A program made the translations under genes and the position numbers. Below, piece by piece: positions 9,701-50,300 of a DNA stretch of 64,000 nt. A model generated the notes under the pieces. It ran no database searches. It saw only the letters and a list, made by a program, of their open reading frames with translations, and was not told the origin of the DNA. The stretch spans positions 3,118,001 to 3,182,000 of the forward strand of contig NC_019867.2 of NCBI RefSeq assembly GCF_002234675.1, given 5' to 3'. Each line of letters starts with the position of its first letter. The first letter of the stretch is position 1. The stretch comes from Oryzias latipes. Its lineage: Eukaryota; Chordata; Actinopteri; Beloniformes; Adrianichthyidae.

Positions 9701-12700
9701 AGAAGCTCTGTTGCCTTTTTCTTAAAATGTTCTTTATAATCCTTTTTCTTTTTCATGATATTTTTTCTGTGTTTTAAGTCATAAACTGGCCAATCAGACG
9801 CCTCAGTGAAAGGAAGCGGTGTTAACTGGCCCCCACGTCCAACATTCAAAACGTTTGATTAAACGATTTCCTGTAGACCACTTCTAAGTGGTAGGGGGAT
9901 GAACGTCCAACAAACTCAATCCTGATTGGCGAGAGTGGTTGCTATAGAAACATCAACTCAGACTGACTTGGACCAATCGCTACCTATTGAAGTCATCTGG
10001 CTCCAACATGGAAACGTCCGTATCAAACGAAAATGATGATTCAAATGACTTCATTTGTCGGAGATGGAAGTCATTTCCTTTGGGTCACGCCACTCTGACT
10101 CGGTCCAGTTCTCAGATACACTCAATGGTTGGGACTCAGAGGACGACGGAGTATTAGAGCCAAAATAAAAGTAAAAAAAAGTTGTAGCTAAGGGGATAAA
10201 GTATTTATGAGGAAAAAGTCGAACTTTATGAGAAGGAAGTCGTAAATTAGTAATTTTATGAGAATAAAGGTGTAAATTTATGAGGAATAAGTCGAAAATG
10301 TACAGGAATAGTCTTTAATTTATGATGGAAAAAATAGTAATTATATATTAATAAAGTATTACATTTATAAGGAAAAATCCATAACTATACAAGAATAAAG
10401 TCGTACATTTATGAGGAAAAGTCGTTATTATATGAAAATAAAGTCGTAAATTTGAGTAAATAGTCGTAACTTTACGTGAATAAAGTCGAAAATTTATAAG
10501 GAAAAGTCGTTATTTTAAGAGAAAGTCGTAAATTTATGAGGAAAAACTATATTTATCAAAAATATAGTTTGTTGTGTAAACTTCCTTCCACAATAACCCT
10601 TGTGCTATCTTAGATGACCCCACCCTTACATTGACGTGTTCTCCCTACCAAGAAAAAGGTGGATAAAGGTGGAAAGATTTCATGTAATCCATGGACACCA
10701 GTGAAGATCACAAATCATTGAAGAAAAAAGGTTCAGAGCACTGTCTAGTGGGTCTAGATGACCCAACTCCCAATGGTAAAGTGACTAGGATAGCACAAGG
10801 GTTAATGGACTTCCGGGCGCTGTCAGGTAAACGCTAACGTGGATGACCGAGGACCATTGATGATGTCATCGAGTGGGACTGGCGTCTGAATTAGAAGACA
10901 TCCCTCTCCGTTTGGAGGGCTAAATGTAGGGGGGGGGGGCTTAGGGGTTGGGGAAGAATTCAGATTGGGCCTCCTATACTGAAGCTTTGGTTATTTTTTT
11001 TTGTTGTTTCTGTTTTTGCTTCGTATACAGACTTTTGTCTCATAAATTTATGACTTTATTCTCATTAAAATTCTCAATTTATAACTTTATCATCATAAAA
11101 TATAAACTCTCACTCAAAATTCTACAAGTTCATTCTCATCAAATTTTTCCTAATTATTTAACGACTTTCGTCTCGTCAAATTATGAATCTTTTCTCATGA
11201 TTGTACTGCTTTATTCTGGTAAATGTTTTTTTTTTTATAGTGGCCCTAGTACTCCATAGTTTCATTTTATTCCAACTCCTGTAAGGAACTTCTGCGGTTC
11301 ATAAATATAACTTTTATAAATAAATAAACACAGACTTTTAAAGCTTCAACTAACATCTTAATGAAACACAACTGACTGATTTGACAAAAAAAAGGAATGA
11401 AAATATTTTTGCAAAGCTTTCATCTTGTAGCAAACTCTGCTTTTCTTTGTGATAATTATTTGTGTAGATTTGGGTTAAAGTAGGATATTGAAGGTTGTGA
11501 AATGTGTTTCTCTGTGGGTCTGGGTACCTTGCAGAGGCTGTAGATGATGATGAGGGAGGCCCCCAGGAAGTAGCCGTTGGAGGGGTCTTCTCCCATGATG
11601 TACTTGTACCACAGCTGGATGGGCACCAGGGCTCGAAACAGCTGGCTCAGCTCCTCGATCAGCAGGTAGAACTTACCCTGGGAGAACGGGCATTAAAAAA
11701 ACGTATTAACAAACCCAACAGCTGAGGCGCTTTTCAGCAAAAACACAGATTCAATCTTAAGCGAGAAGCAAATAAACTCCCAAAGTCGTAATGTGCGTTT
11801 TTTGAAAAACAAGATGGTTTCTGGTGCTTGGGGGCCACTTTTCTATGTCGTCGAAAAGCAGAGAGGTATAAAAAGCTTAGGAGGGCTGGCCTCCAGCGTG
11901 AGTGTGGCCGCCGTCCAGACCTCGGCAGCTCAGGCGACTTCGCCTCACTGCGAGGGGAAACTGGCAGCGGCTCCTTCCACCTGCTACCCAGCGCCCACCA
12001 CATAACCCGGCACGATGGGGGCCCGGGACTCACCCTCCGTAATCACACAGAAGAAAATTGTCTGCGGCCCCCGCGGCTACAGAGTGCGAGATGTGAATTG
12101 GGGACAGTTACAAAAATGGAGGCAAATAAGGCAAACTTGACTCCCCGATGGCCCCCGTGGCTTCCCAGCTCGCGTAATGACTTCACGGATGGCAGCAGAC
12201 AAAGATGGATGACTGTGGGTAAAGAGGCAAACGCGGCCGAGCTGGTAGGGGAGGAAGACGTCGGCTAACTGCTAATTCATCTTCCTTATTGTTCCCTCTT
12301 CTTTGCATCCCACTGTGGCCATCACTCCCACGCAGAAACTGTCAAATTTAAAGTTTGGACTGGAGCCAGTGGGTTTGAGCGGCTCCACTGAAGGCTGCAT
12401 CTGAACAGGTTCCTGCTCGTTTTCAGCATTTATTACCGTCTTCAAACGAATCATTATCTATTTCATTAATCAACTGAAGTGCAAAGCATCAAATATTTGG
12501 CTCAACTGGTTTTGCTGTTCTCATAACGTCTGGCGTTTTTCATGTTCTCAAGTATTTTTATTACCAAGGTTGCACATGAAAAAATGCCCATTAGATTGAT
12601 TTTTACAAATATTGACAATTTACATCAGGTATTCCTTTTTTGAAAATGGATTTATGCAAATTTTCTTTGTTTAAAATTTCCATACATTTCTTACATTCTG

Positions 12701-15700
12701 GTTTACTTTGAACCATTTTTTCCGTAACGTTGCAAGATTGAAGAAAGCGTCTCATTATTTTGTGCCGCCGCCGGCATCTCTGGCATTAAAAGGGTAATTG
12801 AGCCAGATTACTAAAAAGACGAATCACAGAGTCCAAACAAAATAGGTTCAAACGGACTCTACAGAAGCCCAACTGGGCCAAACCATTTCACTCACACCAC
12901 CCACCAGCTAATTGACAAAAAAATACAAATGCACAATTGATTCACAGCCGATAAGCTTATTTATCAGCAAAAAATATTCTGGAATTATAACATTAAAATG
13001 TAATAGAAAAGCTTCTTTTTTCCTCCAAAAAGGTGAAAGTAATTGATTTAAAAATCAATTATTATATTTGATGAATCCATAGTTTCTAATTTTTTGAGCA
13101 CAGATTGATCAAGATGTAATACAGGAAACCGCCGACGGCTCTGATTGTGTCAATCGTTTGTGTGTCACTGGATGAAAACGCACAACTCATCACATGTTCC
13201 ATTAACCATCAAATCCTGCGGATGTGTGTGTGTGTGTGTGTGCAGCATGCGGGAAACACTCCAGCTCCACGGAGGGATGACCTCACCCTATCAAACCGCC
13301 CCCCCAGGGGCAAATGAGCTCAGTTGCTTGCGGAGACAGTTCTGACAGAGCTTTGTTGATCAGTGGAAATTTCTATCCCCCTGCCCTCCGTCCACACACA
13401 GGAGCGGTGCTCTGCTGCTGTACGGAAACACAAATCTGTGTGTGCGTTTGGGTGTGTGTGTGTGTACGGTCATATTTTGATGCCTCAGGTGAGAACACTT
13501 CCCACACACCTGCGCAGCATCATTTAAAACCTTATGAATACAGAACAGCTTCACACTGTGACCCTTCAGCACTTCTTCACTCAGTGAAGAGTTTCATCCC
13601 TTTTGAACATTTACCTTTTTTATTTATTTTATTTTCCCCCCAAAACCAGATTTCAGAACTCAACTTTGTGAACCAGAGAGAGATTCAAGGGATGTTCAAG
13701 AGCTCCGGAGTTCTTTCAGGCTTCTTACTGTCAGCATTATTTTTTACATGTTATTCCCACAAAAAGGGTTGAAATTGTTTTCTTCACGCCTGTATGACAT
13801 GAAATCCAGTTAAAAACAGTCGTAGGGAATGTAACAGAGGAGGCTAAAGGTTAAGAGCACCACTTCAAAATCCATCCATTTATTATCTTTGTGGCTAAAA
13901 TTGCCATCAGCGCCGTTGTATGGCAGGCCGCCTCCTTTGGAGCCGCCCACTAAGCGGCTGCTACACGCACACCCCCTCTGCCCCTCCCACCCCGGTCAGA
14001 GCTACACTATTCAAAAAAAGAAAGACAAAAGGCAACTTTAATTTCAGTTTTGTCACCATTGAATTCTTTGTTTTGGGTCGTCTGGGGATGACAAACCGAT
14101 CCATGTAAGTTTTAGAAAAAATCGGCAAAAGTAAACGTTTGGATTTCCTTGGCAACAGGGGGTTTTCTTAGCCACGCCCACTTTCCTAATATGTTCACAT
14201 CATGTGTCATATCAGCTTCAGCTCAGCGATTCATGTTCTATATTTTCACAATGTTACAGTAATTCAGGCCATCAGACAATACGACACAGTATTAAGGTAA
14301 CATACTGTGTAGACACACGGTGTATTTCATTTGTTGTTTGTATTTTAATTTTAATTAATTTACTTTGTCCTGTAAATTTTGTAAAGATTGTCAAAAGTGG
14401 GAAAATTGTCTGATTTCACACTTTAATGGCCATCATACGGTGGCTGACAGGGCTCACACTACATACAAAAAGAAACAACACAACGGCACTACCCGCAACA
14501 CAACGACATAAACCGCAGCACAACGGAAATGACGGAAGAAGAGGAAATGAGGACTTTATTTTCCTACCGGCGGAAAAAAAAAATTCAGTTTAAAACGAAT
14601 CGTATGACGGAGTTTTACGGCCACCAAAAAAAGAAAATTTAAACAAAAAAGTAAAATTACGAGATTTTAAGAAGTAAATTTACGAGAAAAAAACTCGTAA
14701 TTTTACGAGATTAAAGTGGAGGTGAGCATACAGAGCAGCAAGTGAACGCAGCAGCAGAGCAGACCCACTAAATCTAGTAGATTAGGTGAGCTGAATGTTT
14801 TAAGTCGTAAATTAGTAAGTTTACTAGTTTTTATCTTGTAAATTTACATGAAAAAGATTTAAATTAATGAGTCAGCGTGCATTTATTAACAAATAAATGT
14901 AAATTAACAAGATTTCTTTCTCGTAAATTTACGACTTAAAAGTCCCCCCCTTACATTGACGTGTTCTCCCTACCATGATAAAGGTGGATAAAGGTGGAAA
15001 GATTTCATGTAATCCATGGAAACCAGTGAAGATCACAAATCATTGAAGAAAAAAGGTTCAGAGCACTGTCTAGTGGGTCTAGATGACCCAACTCCCAACG
15101 TTAAAGTGCCTAGGATAGCACAAGGGTTAACAAAAAAGAAAGAAAAAGAGCGTTAGATGCGGTTGTCACTATGGAGAGCTGGGTAAATTTATAATTTTAG
15201 ACAAACGTATATTTTTAAGAAGTTACATTATCTAGTAAGAAAACACCCTAATCTAGTCCAAATATCACGTAGCTTTCAGGAGCGCCGAATAGTTTGAAAC
15301 TGATTTTTTTTTTCCCGCCGGTAGGAAAAAAAAGTCCTCATTTTCTCTTCTTCCGTCATTTCCGTTGCGCTGTGGTTTGTGTCGTTGTGATGAGGGTATT
15401 GTCTCTGTGCTTCGGGTAATACCGTTGCCTTGTTTCTTTTGTATGCAGTGTGAGCCCTGTTGGCCACAGTACCATCCCATAATAATTTCAAAACTTCCTT
15501 TGGATATCTCTGACGTGTGTTTTGGTTTCGTTAGTGGATTTTGACTTTCTTTTAGGCCATAAGAGATTTGGTTTCTCCCACCTTTTTTTTGGGGGGGGGG
15601 TGTTCGTTCACTATGAAAAACAATTCATTTTCAGCTGGTACTGGGTGCGTGCACATTTTGGTTAGTATATGGCGGGGGAAAAGCCCAGGACGAAAGACGA

Positions 15701-38300: not shown

Positions 38301-41300
38301 TTTACCAGATGTGAGGGTACTAGGATTTCCAAACAAACCATTCACAACCGACTCCACCACTTTGACCTGAGACAACCGTTGCAGGTGACTCCACCGACAC
38401 CAAGACATCGCCATCAATGTTTGCATTGGACACGAGACCATGTGACCTGGACAATGCAGCAATGGTCACTGATGGACGTCAGGTCACCTTGCAAAGACAT
38501 TATGGTTGGTTAGTGATGCGGGAGAAGGCGAGGTGAGCGATGCGCCAAGGTCAACATGGTCAAAATAGGAGAAGCACAAATAGCAATATCCCAGATGTAT
38601 TATGAACAGTGTATTTATGTCACTGCAATACATCCGGTAAAATAGTTTCCACATAACTCACAGCTTCCTTAAGCTCTTATCTTGGGCAGCTGTGGTGCAG
38701 ATGTAAGAGGATTGACCTCTGATCGCAATATCACTGGTTCGGTTCTCGCCTTATCCACCCAGTGGATCAAATCCAAATCAAATCAAAACTTCATTTATAA
38801 AGCACTTTTATATAAAAGTAAAACACAAAGTGCTTTACATTAAAACACAACAAAATAAAAAAAACAAGCATGACAATTAAAATAAACAAGCACAAAAATT
38901 AAAAAAAATGGGGCCCCCTCCCCATACCTAGGCCCCCACTCCTTTCACACCTCCCACCCCATAACTGATGGGGGAAAACAATGAGCAATAGGCTGAGCAC
39001 GAAAACAAGATGTTGGAAATGCTGATAATTGGAACCTCCCTCTCTGTGAACAGCTGCATAGACAGCTAAATGCAGCATCACAGGCGGGGACCGCTCCACC
39101 ACAGCTAAGTGGTGATGCAGGTTCCCATCTAGAGTGGCTGAACAGCAGCCGACCCAGAGGGAGAGGTTCCAGCTGAGGAAGCACCGGAAATAAAAATGAG
39201 AATAAAAATGAGAATGAAAAAGTTAACATATTGCAGGGCTCCAGACTAACTTTTTTCACTAGGAGCACAGTGGCCCCTAACTGAAAATTTTAGGGGCGCA
39301 TACCGTAAATCAACATTCTAACCAAATCTACTAATTTCCACTGTATTACTAATAAGTGCTTTAATAATAGATGCAGAAATTACAATGTGCTGTTTCAAAT
39401 TCAGTGTCACATTTTATTCTGCACTTTTGAAGATGCAACAAAACAAAAGCATCGCTGTCATGACAGTACAAATTTATCTTTGTGACACCAAATAGGTGCA
39501 GCCAAGATGCACAATAAGCGTGTTTGAGATCACCCAGGTGAACTCAACGCTGCGCAGATCACCTGGTGTGTGACATATATTTTTGTTTTTGCTCCAACAT
39601 CAACTGTCAATCGAGAAAGGGGTGGGAGCAAGGGGCAAACCTACCCGGACACAGCTGGAAACTGAACTGACTGAAAGCTGCTCTACAGACTACAAAACAA
39701 TGCATTATGGGACATGTGTCCTGATGGTTTTTGTAGTGGAGTGATTAATTAAAATAATTTAAAATACCAATTCATTAAAAAAAGGCTACATACATCACAA
39801 AACATTAAAATAATCATAAAATATATAATAACACAGATCATACTAAGGGGGAGAAGAATATTAAAACTAAATTGAATGTTAAGGACAATTCCTATTTCCT
39901 GTCCTCCTTCAGTCTTGCTGCAGATTCGCTTTCATCTCACAGCCCCCCCCCCCGCCTGGTCTCCCCAACGATCCAGGCGAGGTGCTGGTTCATCTCAAAC
40001 ACGTCTATCGTTGCATTTTCCCCACGTATTTTCAGTGAGTCTAAAACTAATGTTGTTTTTGCTCGAGCGTGTTTAATGTTAGAGCCCCGTTAGCTGTCAC
40101 GCATGTAGGTGTGGGACATTTATTCTCCTCAGCTGACCCGACTCCAGCGGGAGCGGTGTGCTGCCGTAACAACCGCGCAGGACCGTTTTCTGCGCCGCCG
40201 TAACCGTAACCAAAACCTAAACCTTCCTCCGGTTCTGTGCGGCCCAAACAAAAGTTCAGCACGGGCTGCATGTATGTAGAAAATTACGAGCGAATAAATA
40301 CGTTCTAAAGGAAAGTAAGGAACTTCTTAATGTGGTCCGGGGAGGGGGCTGTCAGGTTTCCTGCTTTCAAACCCTGTCATTGTCACGCCCCCAAGTTTCG
40401 TATACCCCACTGTGATTGGTTGGTCAGCTTCGCGCACGACAATGAAAAAGTGTCATTCATACAAACTGGCGGGGCTGCAGTAACATTAAACCTTCATATT
40501 AAGGCGGGGACCGCAATATATCATCTTGGGGGCCGCAAATAGCCTGCGGGCCACGAGTTTGAGACCCCTGCTGTACACTCTGGCACTGGTACACTAGCCG
40601 CAGGTGGGAAGAACGAATCAATAGTTCGCTTGCTCATAGCTCAGATGCAGATATCAGGTTTTGATATTTGTCTCTCCGTTTCCTTCCCACAGATGTTTAC
40701 GCGCTCGATTATCTCTAGGCCCCTCCCCCTACACGCATTTTAGCCACTCACAGTGGCTTTCCCTATTCTTCTCACACGCAGTGGCCGCCTCGCACACAGG
40801 TATCACGCGAGAGTGTACGTGCTCGCGTTTCATGAATATGTGCGCGAGTGTGTGTGTCTGCCTGCGTCCGTGTGCGCTTGCGTCTCATTAATTATTTCAT
40901 TGATCATCGACGTGCCCCTTCCACGTTTGATGTATAAAAAATACGAAGGGTGGGGGAAGCAAATTTACTGGTCGCGCATGTGCGACTGGATGTAAAATTC
41001 AGTCGCACACTCTCAAATTTTGGTCGCAAAATGCGACCAATTGCTCGCAGTCTGGAGCCCTGTATTGATAAAAACAATAAAACATTGAAATAAGGTAAAT
41101 TAAAATAACGCGTTAAAAATCTAGTTCAAGTTCATAAAACAAGATAAAATGGATAAATAAATACATATAAATAACTAACTAAATAAATAAATAAAAGTAA
41201 TAAAAAATCAGCTAAAAGCCAGGTTAAAAAGATGGGTCTTGAGCCTTTTCCTAAAATCATCAATGCTCTCTGCGGCTCTCAGGTCCTCTGGCAGACCGTT

Positions 41301-44300
41301 CCATAAACGGGGCCATAGTGTTGAAACGCAGCCTCTCTGTAGGTTTTGGTTTTTACAGTGGGAATGGTTAACAGACCAGTGCCAGATGATCTCAGGGTCC
41401 GCGAGGGTTCATACTTTACTAAAAGACCAGGGGCCTCATTTATAAACGTTGCGTACGCACAAAAGAAGCCGTACGCCACTCTCTACGCAATAGTTGAGAT
41501 TTATAAAAAGCAAACTTGACAGGAAAATGTGCGGTCCTTCACGCAAGCTCTGACCCAGGCGTACGCACAAAAACGGGTGAAATGAGAAACGGCGACGCCG
41601 TCGGCACATGGAAGAAACACGTGAAAGTGAAAATGACAATACTGCCTCTCAGAAATAACATGAAGACTTCACAAAGCAAGTCTTACAATTAACAGCTACA
41701 CAAACACGAACACGTTTGATCGTTCAGCAGTGAAACAAACAAAAAAAAAATCAAACGAAAATTACAACAGAAATTCAAATGAACACATAATTGCAAAAAG
41801 AAAAGTGAAATATTTTCTGCAATATTGGCATGTTGTGCAATTCATCCTCATAAATAATATATTTAACAGAACGAAATAATGTACACAACTGATATTCCCG
41901 TCAATGTGTCCGTCTGGCGGAGCAGATATAGGTGCAGACAGACAGATGGATAGACAGAGAGAGATGCATTAATTGTCCACTGGGGAAAGTTGTTTTCATA
42001 GTAAAACATTTCTTCATAAGCTACAGAATTATGGTATTCATGCATATGCCTTTAGTTTGTTTTATTTTTGACGAAACAATGTATGGCGTATGTCTCAACC
42101 ATTCAGAAAGCAACAAGAAATTAAATTTGCGCTGATCAATTTCCCATTTCCACGTCGATTATTACCGACATCTGCAGCTTGTCAGATGTAATTAAATGGA
42201 GGGAAATAAAATGCCCCATCACAATGCGTAATGACGCACAATGGCTGATCTTGCGCTCTTAGAAGATGTGGCAAATGGAAGAATTCGGAGTGAACGCATC
42301 TTTAGACAGCAAGGAGACTTGTTGGCAAACGAGGACGAGTGGCTTATGAGCCGGTTCCGACTTCCTCTGCGGGCTTTTGGGGGTGTGTCACCCGGTGCAT
42401 CTGGCGCATCGGTGTTCCCCCCTGCGCCTCAGTCACCACTCCACTTAAAAGGGATTCCCCAATTATTGCCGCCAGTCTCTCATCAGGAGGGGTCAGCTCC
42501 GGTGTCCCCCCCCCCCCCCACACACACACACCCGTGTGTGGGTGTGGGTGTGGGGGGGGGGGGGGTACAGCGCTAGACGTTTTTTTGCTTTGACTTTGAT
42601 GTCCGACCTTTTCTTTTTTATTTCGGCCACGGTCCGAGGTCGTGAGGCTACAGCATTTTCGGCTTCTGCCGCCGTCTGCCACTCACGTGCCTTTTTAGCA
42701 TTTGTAATGCCCACACTGTGCCCTCCAAACAACATTATTCTCCTCTTTTCCACCTCGCCAACGATAACTTCTACTTCACATTGAGTGAAGTTACGTTTTT
42801 TTGATTTTCTCTCCGTGTTTGGCATGGTTTCGCAATCAATGAATATTCATTTGTGGGCGTTTCACGGACTATTTATGGGCAACTATAGGCGTGTGATGAG
42901 GCCGCAAAAGCTGCGCAGCATTTAGGATTGGTTGTGATTTATTAAGAGAAAGATGCGTAGGATGTGCGTGCGCACGGTTTTATAACTCCGAATATTTCTG
43001 TGCGTACGCACGTCCTATGTTTCATCCGTACGCCACTTCTGACGCAAATCCTACGCAAAGTTTTATAAATGAGGCCCCAGGAGGCGAGCTCACATCACCC
43101 CAATTTTAAAATCCCTGCTTTGGCTCCCCATATGCTTCATGATTCATTTTAAGATACTTTTAACAGTTTTTAAATGTCTTAACGGTCTTGCGCCTTCTTA
43201 CTTATCAGGGGCCTCATTTATAAAACAGACGCCGAAAATGCTGTAGCCTCACAACCTCGGACCGTGGCCGAAATAAAAAAGAAAAGGTCGGACATCAAAG
43301 TCAAAGCAAAAAAACATCTAGCGCTGTACCCCCCCCCCCCCCCCCCACACACACACAGACACACCCGTGTCTGCCACGGGTGTGGGGGGGGGGGGGGGGG
43401 GGGGACACCGGAGCTGACCCCTCCTGATGAGAGACTGGCGGCAATAATTGGGGAATCCCTTTTAAGTGGAGTGGTGACTGAGGCGCAGGGGGACACCGAT
43501 GCGCCAGATGCACCGGGTGACACACCCCCAAAAGCCCGCAGAGGAAGTCGGAACCGGCTCATAAGCCACTCGTCCTCGTTTGCCAACAAGTCTCCTTGCT
43601 GTCTAAAGATGCGTTCACTCCGAATTCTTCCATTTGCCACATCTTCTAAGAGCGCAAGATCAGCCATTGTGCGTCATTACGCATTTTGATGGGGCATTTT
43701 ATTTCCATCCATTTAATTACATCTGACAAGCTACAGATGTCGGTAATAATCGACGTGGAAATGGGAAATTGATCAGCGCAAATTTAATTTCTTGTTGCTT
43801 TCTGAATGGTCGAGACATACGCCATACATTGTTTCATCAAAAATAAAACAAACTAAAGGCATATGCATGAATACCATAATTCTGTAGCTTATGAAGAAAT
43901 GTTTTACTATGAAAACAACTTTCCCCAGTGGACAATTAATGCATCTCTATCTATCCATCTGTCTGTCTGCACCTATATCTGCTCCGCCAGACGGACACAT
44001 TGACGAGAATATCAGTTTTGTACATTATTTCGTTCTGTTAAATATATTATTTATGAGGATGAATTGCACAACATGCCAATATTGCAGAAAATATTTCACT
44101 TTTCTTTTTGCAATTATGTGTTCATTTGAATTTCTGTTGTAATTTTCGTTTGATTTTTTTTTTGTTTGTTTCACTGCTGAACGATCAAACGTGTTCGTGT
44201 TTGTGTAGCTGTTAATTGTAAGACTTGCTTTGTGAAGTCTTCATGTTATTTCTGAGAGGCAGTATTGTCATTTTCACTTTCACGTGTTTCTTCCATGTGC

Positions 44301-47300
44301 CGACGGTGTCGCCGTTTCTCATTTCACCCGTTTTTGTGCGTACGCCTGGGTCAGAGCTTGCGTGAAGGACCGCACATTTTCCCGTCAAGTTTGCTTTTTA
44401 TAAATCTCAACTATTGCGTAGAGAGTGGCGTACGCCTTCTTTTGTGCGTACGCAACGTTTATAAATGAGGCCCCTGGTCTTGGTGAGAACTCGTGCAGCA
44501 GAATTTTGGAGAAGCTGAAGGTTCCAGCAAGCAGGGCGTTACAATAATCAACTTTACTCATGATAAAAGCATGCATTAGCATCTCCATATTAGCAAGAGA
44601 GAGTAGTGTGCGGACCCTAACCAGATTTCTAAGATGATAAAAACCAGTTTTAACCACCTGTTTCATATGGGGGATAAAATTTAGCTTAGAGTCGAAGATA
44701 ACGCCCATGTTTCTGACCGTTTCTGAATGACTTAATGAAAGTTCCTGTAGCTTCAGAAACGGTTTCTCTCTTTTGGCTTCAGGACAGATAACTAAAATAC
44801 ATTTGGTTTTGACTCAAAGTTATGGAAACAAGGCTGGAGATGATAATAAAAAACAAAGATTTAGTATTAAGTAAATAAAAGTAAACATTTCTATTGATAC
44901 AAAAATTGCGCTAAAAAAGAAAACTGCTTCTAAATTACAACATTTTAACCAAAGAGCAGAGATCTTCTCCCCTGTGTTTGTGCAAAATGAACTTGGACAG
45001 GATTTCTCAGAAGTGTGCAAACAGATGCGATCACAGACTATCACTTCTGCAGATAAGATGAATTCTCTAGCTTCAATCTTTGGTCTTCGCTTTAAATTCC
45101 AGACCCTTTAGTGAGATGAGCTCATCGACAAACGGATGTTCAGGCTTAACATAAACAGAACGCTATCAGAGGAAGCCACAGACTCACTCATGAAAAGCCT
45201 TTGTGGGAGGAAAGTGGGAGATATTCACAAGTGTAAAAAAAATCCTCAAAGATTCTTTGTGATGACGCTCACCTTCACTTGGCTGACCTCAAGCAAATCC
45301 CAGTGACCGCCGTGTGATCTAATGTGAACAGTGTACACGAGGCAAACTGTTAACACACCAGATCCCACCAAAGACCCGCCGTTAGAAACTAACAAGCTCA
45401 GTCTTTGGGTCATTTTTAAAAGCATTTGCTCGTCCCGCAGAAACATGGACACGGACTCGCCCACCGTATCAGTTCTTAACAAAAAATATTAAATTGGAAT
45501 TGAAGCAGCTTCAAAGACCCGTTAAAAATAGGGTTTTTGGTGTTTTTAACATGTTCTTGTGTCCTTTTTCTGATTGCATTTCTTAGTATTTATTCAAGTT
45601 GTTGTGAATCAGGAGCAGAAAAAAAAATATTGCTTGAAAAAGATCGTATTTGTGAAAATATAGAAAAGGGGGGCCACAAACTCCGCAATGGGGGAGGGGG
45701 CAGGCCCACACCAATGGTCCCGCCCACAACTAGGAGGTACCTTTCTAATGACCTCCTGAACTGTGTCATAGAAAACGGCTGTTTTTTTATTTTTACCAAA
45801 AACCCCATAATCATAATTAAAAGACCACCAGATGATGGGAGTCAGACTTTAACAACCTATGAGCATATAAAGCGATCATTACTGGAAAAAAAAATCTTCA
45901 AGAGGAAGGAAAAACTTTGCCACAAATTTGCATTTGAACAAATTTGCCAAATGCCCTTGGTTAACTACCGTCTACAAAATGCTTGTAAAAAGAAAATAAC
46001 CTCTATAAGAATTTCTTAAAACAGAGGACATAAGATATAAGTCATATAAAAATAAACTAACTTAAATAACATGGCACTGTAAAAAAGTTTACTTTAATAA
46101 TCTACTGAATGAAAATAAAAACAACGTAAAGCGAGTTTGGGAAATATTAAATAACGTCATTAAAAATGGGACAAAAAGCCAAACATATCCAGAGTTCTTT
46201 ACAGATGAGAAGGGTCAAAGCTTTAACATCAATGAAGCAGCAAACAGTCTCAATAACTATTTTGTAAACGTGGGTCCAGAGTTGGCAGCGGAAATTCCAA
46301 AATGCAAAACCAGCAAAGACAATAATCCACTCATCGAAAGGATCCCACACTCAATCTTTCTCTCTGATGTGAACCAAAATGAGCTGATATCAATTGTAGA
46401 TAAATTCAAGAGTAACAACTCCAAAGATTGTGAAGATATAGATATGAAGGTGGTGAAAAAGGTAATTATTAGTATCTCTAAGCCTTTAACAGACATGTAA
46501 CTTATCATTACAAACTGGGAGATTCCCAAACCAAATGAAAATTGCAAAAGTGATTCCGATCTATAAGAGTGGAGACAAACACCAATTTACAAACTATAGA
46601 CCTGTCTCTCTTCTTCCACAATTCAATCATTTTAGAAAAAATATTGACAAATATAACTTTATAAATGAAAACTATCAGCTATCATTGATGCTGTGGAGGA
46701 AATCACAAATGCTCTGGACAAAAAGAAATATGCAGCTGGAATTTTCATTGACTTAAAAAAAGCATTTAACACTCTCAACCATGACATCCTACTTGACAAA
46801 CTGGAAATGTATGGGATAAGAGGAATAGCGCTAACTTGGGTCAAAAGCTATTTAACGGGAAGAAAACAATTTGTCAAGATGAATCAGAAACCAAAGAGAT
46901 AAGTTGTGGTGTCCCACAAGGATCAATCCTGGGCCCGCTACTATTCAATATTTACATAAATCTTCTTTTTCTTTCGGCTTTTCCCATCAGGGGTCGCAAC
47001 AGCGAAACAACCACTCTTTCGAATATAAGTTGCATGGTTAACTTGGCAATGTTTTATGCCGGATGCCCTTCCTGATGCAACCCTCTCAATTTATCCGGGC
47101 TTGGGACCGGCACAGAAGCAGAGAAGGGAACACGGAGCAACCCGGATTCGAACCCTGGTTCCGCGGACGGAAGGCGCCGCAAACCAGCACGAGCTAAACT
47201 GGCTCCCAGGTATTCAATATTTACATAAATGATATGTATTTAATGTTTCAAAGCTTATGAAACTCACTTTGTTTGCTGATGACACAAACATATTCTATTG

Positions 47301-50300
47301 TACACATAATCATATGGAACTTATCAATGTGGTAAACACAGAGTTAAACAAAATAAAATTATGGATGGATTACAACATATTATCTTTGAACCTAGATAAA
47401 ACCAAAGTGATGTTTTTTGGAAACGCAAATAAAGAGCTCTCAATTGAAATAAATAATATCTTAATTGAAAGTGTTACAGAAATCCAATTCTTAGGGGTTG
47501 TTATCGATGACAAACTAAAGTCTCAATAAGTATTTCAATCGTAAATAAATCTAAATTATATTAGAATACAACAGTAGATATTTATTGTACTGTTCTTTAA
47601 TACTACCATATTTCACCTACTGTATAGAAATTTGGGGGAATAATTTTAAGCGCTCACTACATCCTCTCTTTCTACTTCAAAAACGTCAGAGTTGTACATA
47701 AAGCCGGATATCTTGATCAAATAAACAATTTATGTTATCAATCTAGACTTTTAAAACTGTATGACCTTGTGGATTTTTACACTGCACAACTTTTATACAG
47801 AGCCAGTGGGAAATCGTTACCATTCAATATCCAAAAACAGTTCTTAGAAAATGAAGGAGGAACAAACTGAGGGGATGTAGGAACTTTAAGATCAAACTGA
47901 TAAGAACCACTAAGAAAAGTTTCTGTGTGTCGGTGTGTGGCACTAAACTTTTGAACGGGTCAAGTAATGAGCTTAAACAATGTTCAAATATCCAAATATT
48001 CTATAGTGTTTATGTAAAATAATTCTAACATCTTCAGAGCTATTGAGGATTTTTGACCAAATCTGATCCATTTGTAAATATGAAAAATTCCTGAAAATAA
48101 ACAAATTGAAATATTGACATATTCTTTATTTTAGTATGACAATAAGTTCATGATTAGACCGTCCAGAAGGTTTGGTGACAGTAGCTTCAGTATCTTCATA
48201 ACTATTGATAACTTTAGTCATGATTCATATCTATTAAAATTTGAAAAAGTATATGCAACAAGATAAAATAAAGATGGACCTTCCGACAAAATATTTATTG
48301 TGACACGAATATACTGACGAGTCTTCATTACCAGTTCATATAAATATAGAAATTTATTCTTTTTTGTGAGATTATTGATTTTTACAGAATGGTGTTTCAC
48401 AGAGTTTGCACTTTGTTGACGGTCCCTTGGCTTGCTGCCCTTTCTGCATTCACAGCTTGAAGCAAACAATTCTGATTAACAGGCAAAAAAAAAAGAAGGT
48501 CTTTTTACTTTAGAAATGCATTTGCGGTTCACTCTCTGAGTTAATACAAAAGGATTGAGATACTTGCTGACACATTTGAACGTTTATCAGAAGAGTTATT
48601 GAGGCCGGAAGTCCTAATCTGTGAAGATCTTTCTAACTTTATCAAACCTCAGCTGCAAGAGAATTTAAAATGATGAATCCATGGTTCGCAAGTGAGACTC
48701 TGGAAAACCAACTCCGACAAGACAAGAAGACGCAGCAGCAGCTGAGTTTCCGCGGAAAAGGAAAGGCCTGTGTTGGAAGATCGACTCGAGGCTGAGCGCA
48801 GCAACTTCCAGCAGATGACAGTGAAAAGCTGTCCATCCTCCCCCCTTTTACTGGGACGCAGCGCCGGCGAGTTACGCCACACTTTGGGACTGCAACTAAA
48901 GCTGGGGCTGACGCGTCTGCTTTCACTGTTCTTTGGAGCCGCACGGCAACGAGACGGACTCTGACGATGACGTAGCTGGAAGCTGGTGTGTTTGATAGAA
49001 ATTAAGCCCAGCTGACTTTGATGGATTTGTGGATGCTGATTGATGACTGAAAAAATGAAAAATAAATCACAACCAACTCAGTTTTGCGCTCGCTGCCTTT
49101 TTAAAACACACACCAGCATGCATGTTTTACTGGTATGTGTTAACGTTAAATACAAAAAAAAAAACACCCATAACTAACTGAAACAGTGCAGTTTAATCCA
49201 GTGCCGTTGTATTGTAAGGAGAGGAGTGTGTTATGGGAAATAATATGGCTTTAATTGCGTGTTTGTGTTTCTGGCAGGTCAGTGCGTGGTGTGACTCTTT
49301 GACTATCACAGTTAAAAATGTCGGCTCTTTGTGTCAAACTTGTTCGCCACCCCTTGTTAGTGTTAGAGGCTTTAAAAAAAAGGCGGATGTAACGTGGATT
49401 AAAACCTTAACCAACGACCCAAGACCAAGGTAAGAAAGTGCGGCTGGTTTTTTTGTGCTGCAAGTTTTTCTCATGTGTAAATCACTGCATTTGTTACCGT
49501 TTTAATCCTTTTAATCCACGTTACAGTCTTTTCTATTAAAGCCCCTAAAAGAAAGTCCTGCCTCGCTGGACATGACATGTAAATTTTAGCTAATCAGATC
49601 AACCAGAAAGGTTACTGCCCCCAAGTGACAAAAACGGCCCCTTAACACTGAGCGTAAATCCTGGTGAGGGCGCAAAAAGGAACTGACCACGCAGGATCCC
49701 CGCTCAGTGATTTGTTTTTTTTTGTTTTTTTAACTTGTCCTGTCCAACAGCTAGGCAGGCAGATGAGAGCTGAGGGCCTCTTGTGTTGGAAATATTTTAC
49801 TTTAACAAGAGGGGTTATTAATCTTCAGACAAACCAAAGGTATGTCTGAATAAACCCCTTTTGTAATTGAGGCCAAACTTTATTAATTTCAATCATGTTT
49901 GAAAATCTTTGGTGTTGGACCGGACGGAAAAGGAAAGAGGGGAAGAAGAGAGAGGGACGTCAGAGAGAGGGGGGGGGTAGGGGGTGATAATAGGGGGGAG
50001 GGGGGGTAAGACCATGAAGCAGCATAAAGCAACAAGTTTACTGGTTGTTTATCATTACGGTACGGTTCAAATGTAGTACAAAAAGGGCGGGGCCTGTCCA
50101 CACACACACTCAAATGTTATCAACACACCTGCTTGCTGCAAAAATGTCCACCTGTCGACAAGTCAACATGTACACAAAACAGACAGTGCCCGCACGCACA
50201 CCCATGCCCCAAAACCAACTAGTGTGAAACACCTCACCCATTCCATCACGCAAACCACTAGTGCAAAGGCGAGCCAACACCCGCGCCCAGGCGAGCGCCC

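What the first reader, a model, noticed from the sequence alone, without database searches (positions are those of the whole stretch)
41063..44818. LINE segment inverted between two opposite Harbinger copies
The LINE reads on the minus strand on both outer sides, but the intervening coding piece (43081-43205) is on the plus strand. It is flanked by Harbinger copies A and B in inverted orientation. Flipping the middle segment joins VLTKTR to SSHITPILKS and APSYLS to LLVKYEPS, and pairs the CAG target duplications of one insertion. This fits recombination between two inverted Harbinger copies.
Basis: partly seen in the sequence, partly recalled or inferred. Interest (0 to 1): 0.8.

Follow-up and report, generated by a model that had tools for sequence, protein, structure and literature searches.

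The report
Tiny inversion between two inverted transposons
A 131-base piece of an old retrotransposon has been flipped end for end between two opposite-facing copies of a cut-and-paste transposon, most likely by recombination between the copies: a clean but small example of a known kind of genome rearrangement.

Summary
In 7 of 7 other LINE copies from the same genome, the right outer, middle and left outer pieces are contiguous, in that order, on one strand, with no base missing at the joins. In the window the middle (43078-43208) is inverted, and both breakpoints coincide with the ends of two opposite Harbinger-type elements, A (41431-43077) and B (43209-44473), about 1.2% apart. GGG termini, CWG target triplets and a Myb/SANT frame in A fit the NuwaI group of PIF/Harbinger-like elements. 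Flipping the middle pairs CAG with CAG at one site but CAG with CTG at the other. The present arrangement also pairs one of two, so the triplets alone prove nothing; the LINE context does. Recombination between A and B is the best explanation. Hybrid-element transposition of one original element and an assembly flip remain open: the deciding tests need other copies of the element, and none of my 37 genome requests after one search was answered. Known kind (compare Galileo in Drosophila); modest interest.

The parts
38766..39233 (-). 3' part of the host LINE copy
   Evidence: matched from 38762-38768 to 39233 in 5 of 7 LINE loci (L003, L004, L005, L007, L008); L002 only 39149-39233, L006 none
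39234..41062 (.). another DNA-transposon-like insertion in the same LINE, 14-base termini CAGGGCTCCAGACT / AGTCTGGAGCCCTG, 5-base duplication TATTG (39229-39233 and 41063-41067)
   Evidence: termini and duplication; LINE resumes at 41063
41063..41430 (-). left outer LINE piece
   Evidence: follows the middle piece directly in 7 of 7 LINE copies
41428..41430 (.). CAG, outer target triplet of element A (site 1); the LINE copies read CTG here on this strand
41431..43077 (+). element A, 1647 bases, Harbinger-type (NuwaI-like), ends GGGCCTCATTTATAAA...TTTATAAATGAGGCCC
   Evidence: 16-base perfect terminal inverted repeat
42493..42825 (-). 110-aa frame in A with Myb/SANT-like domain (PF13873, E 8.9e-16; its first 88 aa were scanned)
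43078..43080 (.). CAG, inner triplet of A; belongs to LINE site 2
43078..43208 (+). inverted middle LINE piece (131 bases with its target triplets; 4 substitutions against the 7-copy majority)
43206..43208 (.). CAG, inner triplet of B; belongs to LINE site 1
43209..44473 (-). element B, 1265 bases, same family in opposite orientation; lacks 392 bases present in A (42671-43062 by the alignment) next to its left terminus
44474..44476 (.). CTG, outer target triplet of B (site 2)
44474..44798 (-). right outer LINE piece; similarity to the 7 LINE copies ends at 44798 although the copies go on, so this LINE is probably 5'-truncated; it also lacks about 22 bases that the copies have
   Evidence: 44473-44798 in 7 of 7 copies

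Best explanation
Two non-autonomous Harbinger-type (NuwaI-like) elements inserted in opposite orientation at two CWG sites 131 bases apart in one old LINE copy. A later exchange between the two inverted copies (ectopic, non-allelic homologous recombination) flipped the stretch between the exchange points, and with it the 131-base LINE piece. Shown: the inversion relative to the LINE, the coincidence of both breakpoints with element ends, the opposite orientation, and the high identity of A and B. Inferred: that both elements were already present before the flip, that homologous exchange (not transposase) did it, and that a short conversion tract from B's outer flank produced the odd triplet at A's outer flank.
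For: LINE order and strand in 7 of 7 copies; a 3-base overlap (CAG) at site 2, and at site 1 a 3-base overlap with one mismatch by the alignment (BLAST trims it); no base missing at the joins. Flipped-back joins score 1067-1150 bits against 436-771 as in the window. A and B are inverted, with 14 substitutions in about 1200 comparable bases outside the GC-rich loop (counted by hand). At site 2 the flip restores CAG/CAG. The outer flanks of A and B share 8 of 8 bases next to the elements (AAGACCAG), whereas the 7-copy LINE majority at site 1 reads AAGATCTG on that strand; both departures at site 1 equal B's flank, as a short conversion tract would leave. PMC2775673 (section 10 part 1) and PMC8225341 (passages) describe this signature: inverted copies with inner target duplications exchanged and no new duplication.
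Against: The triplets at site 1 are CAG (inner) and CTG (outer) after the flip, so one pair does not match. The present arrangement also has one matching pair (A: CAG/CAG), so the triplets alone do not choose. Two independent insertions of one family 131 bases apart in opposite orientation are needed, a coincidence that hybrid-element transposition of one element would not need. Chimerism of A and B was not tested. The conversion tract is read from two letters.
Confidence: 0.62

Rival explanations
1. Hybrid-element (aberrant) transposition: one element sat at site 2; after replication the ends from the two sister chromatids were used together and inserted at site 1, 131 bases away, leaving an inverted middle with a copy at each end.
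For: Predicts nearly the same anatomy (PMC2775673, section 10 part 1 and Figure S1 legend). Explains why two copies of one family lie 131 bases apart and why they are about 98.8% identical outside the loop and the deletion. Site 2 keeps matching CAG/CAG after the flip.
Against: The new insertion at site 1 should have identical triplets, but they are CAG and CTG. The copies should have started identical; they now differ by 14 substitutions, 2 short indels, a changed GC-rich loop and a 392-base deletion, all of which would have to be later.
Confidence: 0.18
2. Assembly artefact: the 131-base spacer between two near-identical inverted repeats was placed in the wrong orientation.
For: Spacers between inverted repeats of over 1 kb are a known weak point of assemblies (general knowledge). 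No reads were available here.
Against: The whole structure, about 3.4 kb with flanks, is short for long reads. A and B differ in length by 382 bases, which helps to place them. None of this was tested.
Confidence: 0.1
3. Break repair with template switching (two breaks at the element sites with the middle rejoined backwards, or replication fork switching in the short stretch shared by both outer flanks), without a crossover inside the elements.
For: 8 of 8 bases shared by the two outer flanks. [quoted passage not shown] such ends could join in either orientation (inference).
Against: The change is on A's flank only; B's outer flank keeps the LINE majority letters next to the element, so there was no reciprocal exchange there. 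Both elements are present with terminal triplets, so excision alone does not explain the product.
Confidence: 0.07
4. No inversion: the middle is a separate LINE fragment that happens to lie in the opposite orientation.
For: Sequences of this LINE family are abundant (2308 first-look candidates).
Against: It is exactly the missing 131 bases of the outer LINE, with nothing missing at either join.
Confidence: 0.01

Closest known systems
Galileo-generated inversions of Drosophila buzzatii, in particular 2z3 (PMC2775673; section 10 part 1 and find passages seen)
   Same: Two inverted copies of one cut-and-paste transposon at the two breakpoints, with target duplications out of place.
   Different: There the copies were shown to be chimeric and non-inverted chromosomes were sequenced; that inversion is chromosomal, whereas here the flipped LINE spacer is 131 bases. 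The element here is Harbinger-type, not a P-superfamily transposon.
Inversions by alternative (reversed-ends) Ac/fAc transposition in maize (PMC8225341; passages seen)
   Same: Transposon copies at the inversion junctions.
   Different: Those start from directly oriented copies and carry a fresh matching duplication at the junctions; here the copies are inverted and one triplet pair does not match.
NuwaI group of the PHIS (PIF/Harbinger-ISL2EU-Spy) superfamily (PMC4482050; section 7 and passages seen)
   Same: CWG target duplication, termini usually starting GGG, Myb/SANT reading frame; 12 of its 16 listed host genomes are bony fish.
   Different: A and B are short copies in which no transposase was identified; in A the only domain matched is the Myb/SANT one, and only two A frames were scanned in part.

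Membership tests
NuwaI (Harbinger-type transposons) | 3-base CWG target duplication | tested here: met
   CAG/CAG overlap at site 2; at site 1 CAG and CTG, both CWG but not identical
NuwaI (Harbinger-type transposons) | Terminal inverted repeats of 12-61 bases, usually beginning GGG | tested here: met
   16-base perfect terminal repeat GGGCCTCATTTATAAA in A and in B; family description from PMC4482050 section 7
NuwaI (Harbinger-type transposons) | Myb/SANT protein | tested here: met
   PF13873 E 8.9e-16 in A (first 88 aa of the 110-aa frame scanned); over half of the matched domain lies in the stretch missing from B
NuwaI (Harbinger-type transposons) | DDE transposase | tested here: inconclusive
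   The longest listed frame within A or B is 149 aa and largely low-complexity; no transposase model was searched and no autonomous relative was reached
Inversion by ectopic recombination between transposon copies | Two copies in opposite orientation at the two breakpoints | tested here: met
Inversion by ectopic recombination between transposon copies | Target duplications exchanged between the copies | tested here: inconclusive
   LINE context shows that the inner triplets are exchanged, but because CAG and CTG are reverse complements the triplets alone match once in either arrangement
Inversion by ectopic recombination between transposon copies | Both copies chimeric with respect to other copies | not tested
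   Needs other copies of the element; the genome server did not answer (calls listed in Tried and rejected)
Inversion by hybrid-element transposition | Copies identical at origin and matching triplets at the new site | tested here: inconclusive
   Copies now differ by 14 substitutions, indels and a 392-base deletion; site-1 triplets CAG/CTG do not match; later mutation cannot be excluded

The most novel reading that the evidence does not exclude
A Harbinger-type element in a fish made the inversion itself: ends from two sister copies acted as one hybrid element and reinserted 131 bases away. Aberrant transposition of this general kind is described for Ac/fAc (PMC8225341, passages) and P elements (recalled). 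My listings on Harbinger-type elements (15 of 211, 12 of 23 and 3 of 3 papers listed, bodies mostly unread) showed no such case by title or abstract opening.
Probability: 0.15. Interest if true: 0.5.

Novelty: new member of a known kind. Interest (0 to 1): 0.28.

Why it matters
The LINE gives an internal ruler, so the inversion can be read from one genome without an outgroup. Scanning a genome for old LINE copies in which a piece is flipped between inverted transposons would give a count of such micro-inversions and would test how often close inverted transposon pairs recombine or transpose aberrantly. This single case is small and lies inside repeats; whether any gene is affected was not examined.

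Tried and rejected
Target duplications as proof: rejected, since CAG and CTG are reverse complements and one pair matches in either arrangement. Separate LINE fragment: rejected by the exact 131-base fit. LINE 5' inversion by twin priming (recalled mechanism): rejected because the flipped piece is internal and its ends are Harbinger ends. Flipped GC-rich loop inside B as a second inversion: alignment scores 14.5 against 14.0, so no orientation can be told. Match of the sites to the Harbinger3_DR target AAACACCWGGTCTTT (quoted in a passage of PMC3016246): site 2 11 of 15, site 1 10 of 15 (11 with the outer letters). Among 1050 shuffled 25-base stretches 6 reach 11 and 16 reach 10, but 8 places in L006 (one of them site 2 by its coordinate) reach 11, so this is weak support only. 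Lower divergence of the middle (4 of 131) than of the outer pieces (right 32 of 345, part of which lies beyond the end of LINE similarity; left 24 of 368) is at least partly due to choosing the loci by similarity to the middle. Of the four sequences scanned only the Myb-like one matched a family above its cut-off; the LINE outer peptide and the middle gave 0 families, and the other A frame gave 3 below the cut-off (E 0.13 or weaker). The second L006 LINE frame gave 0 Pfam families. No Rfam match at the gathering score and no tRNA in the window.

Planned but not obtained: other copies of A and of B in the genome, and 20 more LINE loci. The requests did not complete: the genome search (29 requests) and the fetch from genomes (8 requests). 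Paper searches, each seen as a listing with abstract openings. Passages were seen of PMC9179366, PMC8225341, PMC10288884 and PMC3016246; passages and one section (or part of it) of PMC2775673 and PMC4482050; of PMC4561436 only the abstract and outline. No paper was read whole.

Full report
Setting. The window is bases 3118001-3182000 of contig C9 of a 734-Mb genome in 25 contigs. That size and number fit medaka, Oryzias latipes; this identification is recalled and comes from no call. The finding lies inside a LINE copy on the minus strand, probably 5'-truncated at about 44798. A relative, L006, carries a reverse transcriptase domain (RVT_1, E 3.1e-28).

Observation. I took seven other copies of the LINE from the same genome (L002-L008, all the loci returned apart from the window itself) and placed the window's three pieces on them. 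In 7 of 7 the right outer piece, the middle and the left outer piece follow one another on one strand. The right outer piece ends on the three bases with which the middle begins (CAG). By the alignment the left outer piece begins on the three bases with which the middle ends (CAG in the middle, CTG in the outer piece); BLAST trims these mismatched letters. No base is missing at either join, though the right outer piece lacks about 22 bases internally. Joined with the middle flipped back, the pieces score 1067-1150 bits; joined as in the window, 436-771 bits (7 of 7 lower; in 6 of 7 the best second alignment covers the left outer piece only, and in L008 it runs through at 771 bits). In L006 the open frame runs unbroken through both sites (VLTKTRRRAHITPILKS...APSYLSDLLVRYEPS). 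The inversion relative to the LINE is therefore established for the assembled sequence. Among 40 scored genome matches out of 2308 candidates, the 39 others all stop at 43077 and 43208, so the joins to the elements are peculiar to this locus among those scored.

The elements. A (1647 bases) and B (1265 bases) are inverted copies of one family with 16-base perfect terminal repeats beginning GGG. They differ by 14 substitutions over about 1200 comparable bases (my count, leaving out the loop and the edge of the deletion), a 4-base and a 2-base indel, a changed GC-rich loop of C and G runs, and 392 bases missing from B next to its left end. A contains a 110-aa frame whose first 88 residues match the Myb/SANT-like domain PF13873 (E 8.9e-16). 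CWG duplications, termini usually starting GGG and a Myb/SANT protein are the features given for the NuwaI group of the PIF/Harbinger-like (PHIS) superfamily; 12 of its 16 listed host genomes are bony fish (PMC4482050 section 7). No listed frame in A or B exceeds 149 aa, so I file them as non-autonomous NuwaI-like elements; no transposase model was searched.

Target duplications. As they stand, A is flanked by CAG and CAG, B by CAG and CTG. After the flip, site 2 has CAG and CAG (LINE sense) and site 1 has CAG and CTG. One pair matches in either arrangement, so the triplets do not by themselves show the inversion; the LINE letters beyond them do. The mismatch at site 1 needs an explanation under every model. 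The outer flank of A reads AAGACCAG, the same 8 bases as the outer flank of B, whereas the seven-copy majority is AAGATCTG at site 1 and AAGACCAG at site 2, each read towards the element. Both departures at site 1 are thus the letters of site 2, as a conversion tract running a few bases out of B into A's flank would leave. Two independent substitutions are the alternative, and the evidence is two letters.

Mechanism. Inverted copies at both breakpoints and inner duplications that belong to the other site are the published signature of ectopic recombination (PMC2775673 section 10 part 1; PMC8225341 passages). PMC2775673 also states that transposition of a hybrid element formed from copies at the same site gives a strikingly similar product, except that the copies are then identical rather than chimeric. 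Here the copies are about 1.2% apart, with a deletion in B, which leans towards two source copies but is compatible with one source and later change. Against recombination stands the coincidence of two insertions 131 bases apart. I put recombination at 0.62, hybrid-element transposition at 0.18, an assembly flip at 0.10 and other break repair at 0.07. The tests for chimeric copies and for B's deletion elsewhere need other copies of the element. 37 requests to the genome server after one search did not complete (calls listed in Tried and rejected), so this part is open.

Verdict. It is a clean instance of a known kind of rearrangement, small and inside repeats. Three paper searches (CC-licensed PMC only; 15 of 211, 12 of 23 and 3 of 3 papers listed) showed no paper that by its title or abstract opening reports such an inversion by a Harbinger-type element; that is weak evidence of absence.

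Noticed in passing
39234-41062: A second DNA-transposon-like insertion in the same LINE copy, with 14-base termini CAGGGCTCCAGACT and a 5-base duplication TATTG.
   Followed up: partly
42506-42566 and 43329-43405: GC-rich C-run/G-run loop inside A and B whose centre differs strongly between the two copies; its orientation in B relative to the element cannot be told.
   Followed up: partly
43209-43230: B lacks 392 bases next to its left terminus, leaving only the first 18 bases of that end; looks like an internal deletion of the kind seen in non-autonomous elements.
   Followed up: partly
10244-10546: Array of AT-rich tandem repeats with units of about 21-22, 43 and 85-87 bases.
   Followed up: no
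14479-14602 and 15286-15409: Another inverted pair in the window, 124-base arms at 87% complementarity, 683 bases apart; a 187-base direct repeat (10619 and 14944, 96%) has its second copy between these arms.
   Followed up: no
46270-47529: Frames resembling a non-LTR reverse transcriptase (DLKKAFNTLNHDIL, CGVPQGSILGPLLF, FADDTNIF) on the plus strand, probably another decayed LINE; by eye only.
   Followed up: no
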